Positions 5,858 to 9,401 of a stretch of 44,416 nt of DNA are shown here, piece after piece. Within the stretch, counting starts at the first letter, position 1; the number at the start of each line of letters is the position of its first letter. The position numbers were made by a program, and so were the translations under genes. Under the pieces are notes generated by a model, which saw only the letters and a program-made list of their open reading frames with translations, had not been told where the DNA came from and did no database searches. Source of the DNA: a virus; the IMG/VR virus record IMGVR_UViG_3300046542_000329, positions 1 to 44,416 of that record; one strand, given 5' to 3'.

Positions 5858-6936
5858 TCAGGCTGCTGGCGCGGAATCGTGAAACACGTCCATCTGCGCC
5901 GCGCCGTCGAGCCAGGCCGCCGCGATGCGGCGTTCAGCCATGGCGGCGTACTCCGGATTGAGTTCGCAGAGGATAGATTTGCGGCCCTCCTGCATTGCGA
6001 CCACCGCCGTGGTACCGGCACCGCCGAACGGGTCAAGCACGATTCCACCGCGCGGGACCCCCGGCCAGAATGCAAGGCCGGATCAGTTCAGGCGGGAAGG
6101 TGGCGAAGTGAGCGCCTTTGAAGCCTTGGGTCGGCACCGTCCAGACGCTGCGCTTATTTCGGGTGTCGAGCGGGTAGGCGCTTTCTTCCCGATCCGGGCG
6201 GTGCGTACCGAGTGAGTGCCCAGGTATTGCCTGCTCTCGCTTGGAACCTTCGGCGCTGACTCCGGACCGCTTTCATGGGGCCGTTTGCCTTGCCCGGTAC
6301 GCGGTCGCTACCGAGTTGTTGCTCGAGATCCTGAGCGAGTCTGACAACCGAGCTCAGTGCTACCGGCTCACGTATCGCATCCTGGTCGTAAAAATAGCGC
6401 GGGCACTTGCTCAACAGAAACACGTACTCATGGGATTTAGTGCAACGATCCCTTGTGGATTCAGGCATTGGATTCGGCTTATGCCAGATGATGTCCTGAC
6501 GCAGATACCAGCCGTCATCCTGCAAGGCGAAGGCCAGCCGCCACGGGATGCCCATCAGATCCTTTTGTTTCAACCCAGTCGGTGGCGTCCGGCGCTTCCC
6601 ACGCAGCACAGCTCCGCGCGTGGATTGGGAAACCATGTCGTGCTTTCCTGCCGATCCGCCCGGGGCATATCCGCCGGCGATTGAGGCGTACGTGTCGCCC
6701 ATGTTCACCCAGAGAGTGCCGTCGTCACGCAGTACCCGCCGCACCTCCCGGAACACTTGCACCAGGCGAGAAACGAATTCGCCCGGCGTTTCCTCCAGCC
6801 CGATCTGGTCGGGCATGCCGTAATCCCTCAGCCCAAAGTAGGGCGGGCTGGTCACGCAGCACTGCATTGACTGATCCGGCAAGGTCCGCATCATGTCGAT
6901 GCAGTCGCCAACCAGTATCTGGTGGGAGGGAGTCAT
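5858..6936 (-). pseudogene. Class beta DNA methyltransferase (N4-C or N6-A), frameshifted
   Basis: The first part (ATG 6936, ending at a TAA at 6154) opens HQILVGDCIDMMRTLPD and has the catalytic motif IV TSPPYFGLRDYG near residue 30, with later motifs to about residue 190. The SAM-binding motif I LDPFGGAGTTAVVA appears only in another frame near 6000-6040, after KRSVWTVPTQGF and HFATFPPELIRP. Motif IV before motif I is the class beta order. The two halves join by a shift between about 6285 and 6160, where both frames are open. No restriction partner lies next to it. As read, SAM binding is lost; a sequencing error cannot be excluded. Confidence 0.85.
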
Positions 6937-7551: not shown

Positions 7552-9357
7552 TTATTCATGGAATCCCTTCTGAGAAACGCTCAGGCCGACCGCAACCGGG
7601 CGAACCCAGATCGGCATGTTGCTGAGCATGAATGTTTCGCCGGCAGCAGCCAGCAATAGGGTGGTGCCCATCACATCGGCGATTGCTTCGGCTGCGTGCG
7701 GCGGGACTGCGTTTCCGATGCGTTCGCGCCATGCCTGATCGCTTAGGCCGTCCAGCTCGAATTGTTCTTCCGGTTCGACCAGGCTTTGAATGGCAGCCAG
7801 CTCCAAAGTGGTGAAGGGGCGGTGCCAGGTGCCGTCGAGGCTTTCGATGACGCAGGTCAGTCGGTCGTTGGGTTCCGGCATGCGTGGATCAGCGACAGAC
7901 CAGCGACCGTTATCCTGGCGGGCGCTTGCTGAGACTGCGCCGCACTGATCGTTCCAGGCGACAACTCCATAGTGTCCACCCGTGAGGTAGGCGTCACCTT
8001 TCACGCGTTTCATGCCCGGGCGGGGGTCAGCGATGGACAGCGCGCCGCTAGCAACTTGCAGTGACCCTGTCACGGTCCCGGCTGTTTTGTCCCATGGACA
8101 AACGCCCAGCTTTCGAGTGCTCGCCCCTGGGTGCCAGTTGTGGTATCTGGGGTCTTGCACGGCGAAGGAGCTCTGGCCGGTGGTGCTGGCGGCGATAACC
8201 GTTCCGCTGGCAGCGTCCCATGGCGTAACCATGTACTTGCCGAAGGAGCTGCGCGGTTGGCGCGGGTCAGCAACGCTGAACGTCCCTTGCCCGGGCGACT
8301 TCACACCGATGACCGCGCCGCTCGTTTCGCCCCACTGGCGCACGCCGTACTGTTGGTATTGCAGGGCGCCAGCTTTGGCGCGCGGATCCGCAACCGAAAA
8401 CGCACCATTGGTTGGGCTGCTGCGACCGGCGACCGTGCCGGCGGTGTCCTGCCAGTCATGCACACCCAGGTATCCGGCACGGCACTCAGGCAGGATCACC
8501 AGATCACGCAGGTAACCGTCCTCAACCGCCAGGTCATTCAGGCTGCGCCAGTCCTTGCCGGCGGTGACCAGGGCGAGGCGAACCCATGTTTTCCATTGCA
8601 GCGCCGGTACACGGTGCATTGGGCCCGCGGACTCGATGTCGCCAGCGAGCGGCATCCGGCCGAGGATTGAGCCGACAGACTTGAGCGTTTTCTTTTCCGG
8701 CTCGTACAGGAACGGCGGTACCTTCTCAATATGGCGAGCCACCAGCAAGAAGCGTTTGCGGCTCTGGGCCAGGCCGCCAATAACGCCGCAGTCGTGGGTG
8801 GTTTCCGCGACGGCATAGCCGTAGTGCTCCAGTAGCTTGTTGATCTGGTCCAACAGGTGCCGGCCACGAGTGGCGAGGCGCGGCACGTTCTCGAACACCA
8901 GCAGCGGGACAGGGTCATCTTTCCATGCTTCCCCAAACAACCAGATGCAGCGCAACGTCAGTTCGTTTAGGGCCTGGTACTTGGGAGTGAGGCTCAACTT
9001 TTCAGACAACAATCCCGATGCGCCTTTGCAGGGACTGGAAATGAACACGGCGTCAGGCCTTTGGTAGTTGGCGGCGCGGCGGATATCTTCCACCGTGGCT
9101 TCACGCCAACCCGGCGGCGGTTCTTTACCGTGGAAACGGATGTATTGATCGCGAGTGAAAAGGTCCAGCAAGGTGCCTTTTACACCGCTCAACCGTTCGA
9201 AGTCCGCCAATCCGGCCGGGTCGATATCGACGCCGCCGATACATTGCCATTCGGCTTGAACGTTACCGACGATGGGCTTTGACCGATTAAAACCTTTGGC
9301 GCCGCCGCCGAGGCCGCAGCAAAAATGAAAGTGTTTGAGTACGCGCTTGAGCATCAT
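7552..9357 (-). CDS. DNA C5-cytosine methyltransferase with repeat-built target domain
   Basis: The 601-aa protein has all key C5-methyltransferase motifs: FCCGLGGGAKGF (motif I, 12-23), SSPC with catalytic Cys110 (motif IV), ENV at 156-158 (VI), QSRKR at 198-202 (VIII) and GNAVPP at 548-553 (X). Between VIII and X, residues 297-492 hold five copies of a roughly 40-residue unit, W-[D/N/G]-x2-[A/S/C]-G-[T/A]-V ... D-P-R. That is where the target recognition domain normally sits, so the repeats probably form or extend it. The start at 9357 has AAGGAC upstream, and a terminator at 9377-9401 separates it from the recombination genes. Likely role: modifying phage or host DNA against restriction. 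Confidence 0.9.
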   Translation of the reverse strand: MMLKRVLKHFHFCCGLGGGAKGFNRSKPIVGNVQAEWQCIGGVDIDPAGLADFERLSGVKGTLLDLFTRDQYIRFHGKEPPPGWREATVEDIRRAANYQRPDAVFISSPCKGASGLLSEKLSLTPKYQALNELTLRCIWLFGEAWKDDPVPLLVFENVPRLATRGRHLLDQINKLLEHYGYAVAETTHDCGVIGGLAQSRKRFLLVARHIEKVPPFLYEPEKKTLKSVGSILGRMPLAGDIESAGPMHRVPALQWKTWVRLALVTAGKDWRSLNDLAVEDGYLRDLVILPECRAGYLGVHDWQDTAGTVAGRSSPTNGAFSVADPRAKAGALQYQQYGVRQWGETSGAVIGVKSPGQGTFSVADPRQPRSSFGKYMVTPWDAASGTVIAASTTGQSSFAVQDPRYHNWHPGASTRKLGVCPWDKTAGTVTGSLQVASGALSIADPRPGMKRVKGDAYLTGGHYGVVAWNDQCGAVSASARQDNGRWSVADPRMPEPNDRLTCVIESLDGTWHRPFTTLELAAIQSLVEPEEQFELDGLSDQAWRERIGNAVPPHAAEAIADVMGTTLLLAAAGETFMLSNMPIWVRPVAVGLSVSQKGFHE

Positions 9358-9376
9358 GCGGCGGAGTCCTTTGGAC

Positions 9377-9401
9377 AAAAGAAAGGCGCCCATAGGCGCC
9401 C
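9377..9401 (-). terminator. Intrinsic terminator after the recombination operon
   Basis: On the minus strand GGCGCC (9400-9395) pairs with GGCGCC (9390-9385) and is followed by TTTCTTTT (9384-9377). It lies between the SMC-like ATPase stop and the methyltransferase start, so leftward transcription must pass it to reach int. Confidence 0.7.

What the first reader, a model, noticed from the sequence alone, without database searches (positions are those of the whole stretch)
7880..8467. C5 methyltransferase with five tandem repeats in the target-recognition region
Residues 297-492 repeat a unit of about 40 residues, W-[D/N/G]-x2-[A/S/C]-G-[T/A]-V ... [S/A]-[V/I]-x-DPR, five times. Ordinary C5 enzymes have one target domain. 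A modular array could recognise several sequences, or evolve by unit gain and loss.
Basis: partly seen in the sequence, partly recalled or inferred. Interest (0 to 1): 0.65.

Follow-up and report, generated by a model that had tools for sequence, protein, structure and literature searches.

The report
Phage DNA methyltransferase with swappable target-readers
A temperate phage, probably of Pseudomonas, carries a cytosine DNA-methylating enzyme with five tandem copies of a small module placed where such enzymes read their target sequence; relatives carry 2 to 10 copies that are gained, lost and swapped as whole cassettes, so one enzyme can probably mark several different sites and shield the phage from many restriction enzymes.

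Summary
The 613-aa ORF at 7552-9393 (-) is a C5-cytosine methyltransferase with five ~40-aa repeats (residues 305-505; window 7879-8481), lying between motif VIII and motif IX, the slot of the target-recognition domain (TRD). No restriction enzyme was recognised beside it. Across 266 unique complete relatives (Pseudomonas phages and plasmids, other Pseudomonadota, Thermodesulfobacteriota, Bacillota) unit number runs from 2 to 10. Units fall into conserved classes (here B-D-C-E-A). The first and last units are nearly fixed; inner ones are inserted, deleted or reordered as whole cassettes, with breakpoints at the shared ADPR motif, even between enzymes with a 100% identical catalytic domain. All five units are under purifying selection. 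The residues that define a class lie just after the T-V doublet, the core feature of known TRDs. The best explanation is an orphan multispecific methyltransferase, one core TRD per unit, working like the Bacillus phage SPR/phi3T enzymes but as a separate, more modular family. Multispecificity itself is inferred: no target was measured, the unit fold did not model confidently, and the units do not match SPR/phi3T TRDs by sequence. It is a new variant of a known kind.

The parts
7552..9393 (-). C5-cytosine DNA methyltransferase gene, 613 aa (600 aa if translation starts at Met14, 9354)
   Evidence: ORF; PF00145 E 1.8e-12; PHROG 116 DNA methyltransferase E 4.7e-55; fold search of the model of a relative: the 50 listed rows are C5 methyltransferases
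9301..9330 (-). motif I, FHFCCGLGGG (SAM binding), residues 22-31
   Evidence: sequence; the glycines are invariant in 38 relatives
9028..9033 (-). motif IV Pro-Cys (catalytic Cys122)
   Evidence: invariant in 119 sequences; aligned to the SPR/phi3T PC motif by hhalign
8884..8892 (-). motif VI Glu-Asn-Val, residues 168-170
   Evidence: invariant in relatives
8752..8766 (-). motif VIII QSRKR, residues 210-214
8377..8481 (-). TRD unit 1, class B (res 305-339)
   Evidence: unit HMM 62.6 bits; class B is always first where it occurs; dN/dS 0.15
8257..8361 (-). TRD unit 2, class D (res 345-379)
   Evidence: 61.7 bits; dN/dS 0.03
8143..8247 (-). TRD unit 3, class C (res 383-417), exchangeable cassette
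   Evidence: 52.3 bits; dN/dS 0.07; present, absent or moved in relatives
8017..8121 (-). TRD unit 4, class E (res 425-459), exchangeable cassette
   Evidence: 55.2 bits; dN/dS 0.09; deleted or replaced in relatives
7879..7983 (-). TRD unit 5, class A (res 471-505), nearly always last
   Evidence: 57.2 bits; last in almost every array; dN/dS 0.08
7813..7821 (-). motif IX region (TWHRPFTTLE), residues 525-527 RPF
   Evidence: invariant RPFTT in 38 relatives
7699..7716 (-). motif X GNAVPP, residues 560-565

Best explanation
This is an orphan, multispecific C5-cytosine methyltransferase of a temperate, contractile-tailed phage. One catalytic domain serves a tandem array of five core target-recognition domains. 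Each ~40-residue unit has a constant scaffold (V-x-x-W ... G-T-V ... V-A-D-P-R) and a class-specific loop just after the T-V doublet, which would contact the major groove as the T-L loop of M.HhaI does. Each unit would dock its own short target into the same active site, so the phage genome is methylated at several different sequences and is protected from many host restriction enzymes with one gene. The repertoire changes when recombination at the shared ADPR sequence adds, removes or swaps whole in-frame cassettes. Shown: the C5 motifs, the array in the TRD slot, variable unit number, class conservation, cassette exchange, selection on every unit, and no restriction enzyme recognised nearby. 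Inferred: that each unit is a TRD, that the classes read different sequences, and that the purpose is anti-restriction.
For: C5 family and motifs. Array exactly between motif VIII and motif IX. Repeats above chance. Unit number 2-10 in 266 unique relatives. Classes and architectures. Whole-cassette indels with breakpoints at or next to ADPR and near-identical flanks. Class-defining residues sit after the T-V doublet (columns 16-26: within-class entropy 0.04-0.8, overall up to 2.8). Every unit under purifying selection: dN/dS 0.03-0.15 against 0.08 for the catalytic domain. Known comparators: in the retrieved SPR and phi3T enzymes the T-L/T-V/T-I doublet occurs three times and twice in the TRD region, matching three and two known specificities (SPR's triple specificity by the title cited; phi3T from memory); phi3T's doublet region aligns to the M.HhaI TRD segment RIYSTRGIAITLSAYGGG. 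[quoted passage not shown] No REase partner recognised; temperate phage context.
Against: No methylation data for any member. AlphaFold leaves the units mostly at pLDDT below 50, so DNA contact is not shown. The unit HMM does not detect the SPR/phi3T TRDs nor any C5 enzyme in the PDB; the TRD identity rests on position and the T-V doublet. The functional parallel is a different family whose authors called the enzymes relaxed, not multispecific, and the Paracoccus sequences themselves were not inspected here.
Confidence: 0.8

Rival explanations
1. One relaxed specificity: the units together read a short degenerate target (for example a cytosine in CC), and the number of units tunes affinity or efficiency, not the set of targets.
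For: The nearest functionally studied proteobacterial phage m5C enzymes (a relative of which carries such repeats) were described as relaxed, partly protecting many sites (PMC3925955; PMC5537653).
Against: Classes keep sharply different loop residues across species and units in one protein are only 31-49% identical; units doing one job would be expected to homogenise. Known tandem-TRD enzymes are multispecific.
Confidence: 0.12
2. Only one unit (for example the fixed last unit A) reads the target; the others are spacers or remnants.
For: First and last units are nearly fixed while inner ones come and go.
Against: Every unit has dN/dS of 0.03-0.15, like the catalytic domain, and all keep the T/A-V doublet and DPR. 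In two relatives (L125, L126) it is the last unit that has decayed while the inner ones are intact.
Confidence: 0.04
3. The array is a docking or oligomerisation module (protein-protein or non-specific DNA clamp), not a specificity module.
For: The units did not model confidently, so their place relative to DNA is open.
Against: The array occupies precisely the TRD slot between motif VIII and motif IX; apart from a conserved lead-in of about 90 residues after motif VIII no other TRD-sized region remains there.
Confidence: 0.04

Closest known systems
Multispecific C5 methyltransferases of Bacillus SPbeta-group phages (M.SPR, M.phi3TI, M.H2I; Trautner and colleagues)
   Same: Phage-borne orphan C5 enzyme; several tandem TRDs between motifs VIII and IX; one T-L/T-V/T-I doublet per TRD.
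   Different: In the retrieved SPR and phi3T enzymes 2-3 TRDs that look unlike each other; here 2-10 clearly homologous cassettes with a shared W...TV...DPR scaffold, reordered between relatives. No sequence match between the unit types.
Relaxed-specificity m5C methyltransferases of Alphaproteobacteria prophages (Paracoccus JCM7686_0772/_2655; relative in Rhizobium phage RR1-A)
   Same: Large phage C5 enzyme; about eight T-V/T-I-type repeats in the RR1-A enzyme; the Paracoccus members protect many sites in assays.
   Different: Not the same family: the full-length profile finds no match and the unit HMM scores only marginally above shuffles (9.3 against 6.7).
Aeromonas phage ARM81ld_p31
   Same: C5 enzyme with several D-x-P-x-x-T repeats and reported relaxed specificity.
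   Different: Not found by tblastn with the window enzyme; weak unit match (4.4 against shuffle maximum 3.6).
M.HhaI and other single-TRD C5 methyltransferases
   Same: Catalytic fold and motifs.
   Different: One TRD with one T-L doublet.

Membership tests
C5-cytosine DNA methyltransferase (PF00145) | Conserved motifs I, IV (PC), VI (ENV), VIII (QxRxR), IX and X (GN) | tested here: met
   PF00145 47.8 bits against cut-off 22; motifs invariant or nearly so across 38 and 119 sequences; fold search. The stricter NCBIfam dcm model stays below its cut-off, 35 against 100.65 bits.
C5-cytosine DNA methyltransferase (PF00145) | Methyl transfer to cytosine C5 | not testable with these tools
   needs an assay
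Multispecific Bacillus phage C5 methyltransferases (SPR/phi3T type) | More than one TRD-like unit in tandem between motif VIII and motif IX | tested here: met
   five units at residues 305-505, motif VIII at 210-214, motif IX at about 525
Multispecific Bacillus phage C5 methyltransferases (SPR/phi3T type) | T-L/V/I doublet in each TRD | tested here: met
   TV in three and AV in two of the five window units; column 15 is V or I in nearly all units, column 14 is T in 53% and A in 37%; SPR and phi3T checked
Multispecific Bacillus phage C5 methyltransferases (SPR/phi3T type) | Common descent of the TRDs | tested here: not met
   unit HMM scores SPR/phi3T no better than shuffles; only the catalytic part aligns
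Multispecific Bacillus phage C5 methyltransferases (SPR/phi3T type) | Several distinct target sequences, one per TRD | not testable with these tools
   no methylome available
Orphan phage methyltransferase | No cognate restriction endonuclease nearby | tested here: met
   flanking ORFs scanned with Pfam, PHROGs and PADLOC: no REase recognised, though several flanking proteins match no family
Relaxed-specificity m5C family of Paracoccus/Rhizobium prophages | Sequence homology over the full protein | tested here: not met
   A1 profile gives no hit to the RR1-A enzyme

The most novel reading that the evidence does not exclude
A mobile cassette library of DNA readers: a family of phage and plasmid C5 methyltransferases whose target set is assembled by recombination of 2-10 interchangeable ~40-residue TRD cassettes between fixed end units, so that the number and identity of protected sites evolve rapidly and can be read from the cassette string.
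Probability: 0.5. Interest if true: 0.72.

Novelty: new variant of a known kind. Interest (0 to 1): 0.58.

Why it matters
C5 target recognition still cannot be read from sequence. Here nature supplies closely related enzymes with the same catalytic domain and arrays that differ by one cassette, so each cassette's target could be assigned by subtraction. It would also explain how phages and large plasmids of Pseudomonas could evade many restriction systems with one gene, and it extends a classic 1980s Bacillus phage principle to a family found in three phyla.

Tried and rejected
Sequence search for a solved relative: none for the protein (E 0.27 antibody hit, chance), none for the family profile, and only short NF-kappaB chance hits for the unit profile. 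AlphaFold of the window protein (38 sequences) and of a 2-unit relative (119 sequences): catalytic part good in the second, units mostly below pLDDT 50 in both, so repeat-DNA geometry was not used as evidence. Foldseek TM-scores are modest because the units are unresolved in the model; only the family assignment is used. Unit HMM against SPR/phi3T TRDs: no signal. Young tandem duplication or assembly artefact: rejected, units are 40-51% identical in DNA and conserved in hundreds of relatives. A scan of viral contigs with the Bacillus velezensis plasmid member found no relatives. Papers on this family: none found with target data; the original TRD papers are not held.

Full report
What is there. 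The window is a temperate phage with integrase, repressor, RecT-like annealing protein, terminase, major head protein, tail sheath and tape measure. On the minus strand at 7552-9393 lies a 613-aa ORF (600 aa from the second likely start, Met14). It is a C5-cytosine methyltransferase: PF00145 above its cut-off, PHROG 116, and motifs I (CCGLGGG), IV (PC), VI (ENV), VIII (QSRKR), IX (HRPFT) and X (GNAVPP), invariant or nearly so in relatives. Between motif VIII and motif IX are five units of about 40 residues, V-x-x-W-x4-G-[TA]-V ... [SA]-[VI]-x-D-P-R, at residues 305-505. Self-comparison scores far above shuffled versions (63 against at most 39).

Unit number varies. A unit HMM counted 2-10 units in 266 unique complete relatives from IMG/VR, GTDB genomes, phage records and plasmids (earlier subsets). 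Hosts include Pseudomonas, Sinorhizobium, Burkholderia, Roseomonas, Nitratidesulfovibrio, Bacillus, Priestia and Paenibacillus. On a tree of 140 catalytic domains at least 66 changes of unit number are needed; randomly shuffled labels need 71-83, so the number is only weakly inherited (FastTree, so tree error inflates the count).

Units are cassettes of distinct classes. Clustering of 716 units gave a few large classes (single linkage at 72% identity). Class B occurs only in first place (129 units), class A is last in nearly all arrays, D is usually second, and C, E, F, G and J are inner cassettes that come, go and change order (B-D-C-E-A, B-D-C-F-E-A, B-D-F-C-A, B-D-C-A, B-D-F-J-A, B-D-A and others). 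The window is B-D-C-E-A. Within one protein the five units are only 31-49% identical, while the same class is strongly conserved across species. Enzymes with nearly identical catalytic domains carry different arrays: L087 and L033 are 100% identical over the aligned catalytic region of up to about 285 residues yet are B-D-C-E-A and B-D-F-C-A; L132 and L100 differ by clean removal of cassette J with near-identical flanks; L086 and L018 differ by insertion of F and exchange of C. Breakpoints fall at or next to the shared ADPR sequence, which suggests recombination between units.

Units look functional and TRD-like. In 35 B-D-C-E-A enzymes dN/dS is 0.03-0.15 for each unit against 0.08 for the catalytic domain (synonymous sites are near saturation, so the values are approximate). 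The class-defining residues (columns 16-26) follow immediately after the T-V doublet. A T-L/V/I doublet is the known landmark of C5 TRDs (established knowledge; M.HhaI T250-L251). In the retrieved phi3T enzyme, the doublet segment RVYSPEGLSPTLTTMGGG aligns to M.HhaI RIYSTRGIAITLSAYGGG, and the retrieved SPR enzyme has three such doublets in its TRD region, matching its known triple specificity (title of Gunthert and Reiners 1987, cited).

Mechanism. The best reading is a multispecific orphan methyltransferase, one core TRD per unit, protecting phage DNA at several sites. [quoted passage not shown] PMC5923457). [quoted passage not shown] Its authors called this relaxed specificity, so a single relaxed target remains the main rival here.

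Limits. No target of any family member was measured. Both AlphaFold models leave the units mostly below pLDDT 50; the fold search supports only the catalytic family. The unit HMM does not detect SPR/phi3T TRDs, so common descent with those TRDs is not shown. It works like an SPR-type enzyme but is not filed as a member of that family.

Novelty. The principle is known; this family, its size (2-10 homologous cassettes), its fixed ends with an exchangeable middle, and its spread across phages and plasmids of three phyla were not found described in the held papers. It is rated a new variant of a known kind.

Noticed in passing
window 6154-6936 (-): A second methyltransferase ORF (N6/N4 type, 260 aa); the PF01555 match covers only profile positions 2-124 of 221, so it may be truncated or frameshifted.
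   Followed up: no
L125 and L126 (Pseudomonas), last unit: The terminal A unit has lost its T-V core and the DPR motif, a decaying cassette, while motif IX after it is intact.
   Followed up: partly
L138 and L127, just before the first unit: Short remnants (GFAVRDPR, GGVVVDPR) look like the stump of a deleted first unit, as expected from in-frame recombination between units.
   Followed up: partly
L147 (Sphingomonas aliaeris plasmid): The homologous methyltransferase is split over two frames, probably broken; its array has many units.
   Followed up: no
plasmid hits H39-H78 and H131-H190: Close relatives of this phage enzyme sit on large Pseudomonas plasmids, several from clinical isolates; in two of the plasmids examined (L146, L148) the gene is next to rdgC.
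   Followed up: partly
L377 (Rhizobium phage RR1-A) 41579-43672 and L378 (Aeromonas phage ARM81ld) 25673-27337: Two C5 methyltransferases of another family also carry tandem P-x-x-T repeats in the TRD slot, so tandem TRD arrays may have arisen more than once in phages of Pseudomonadota.
   Followed up: partly
L134 (contig labelled Streptomyces sp. IBSBF 2953): A Pseudomonas-like copy split into two ORFs in a genome labelled Streptomyces; possibly contamination.
   Followed up: no
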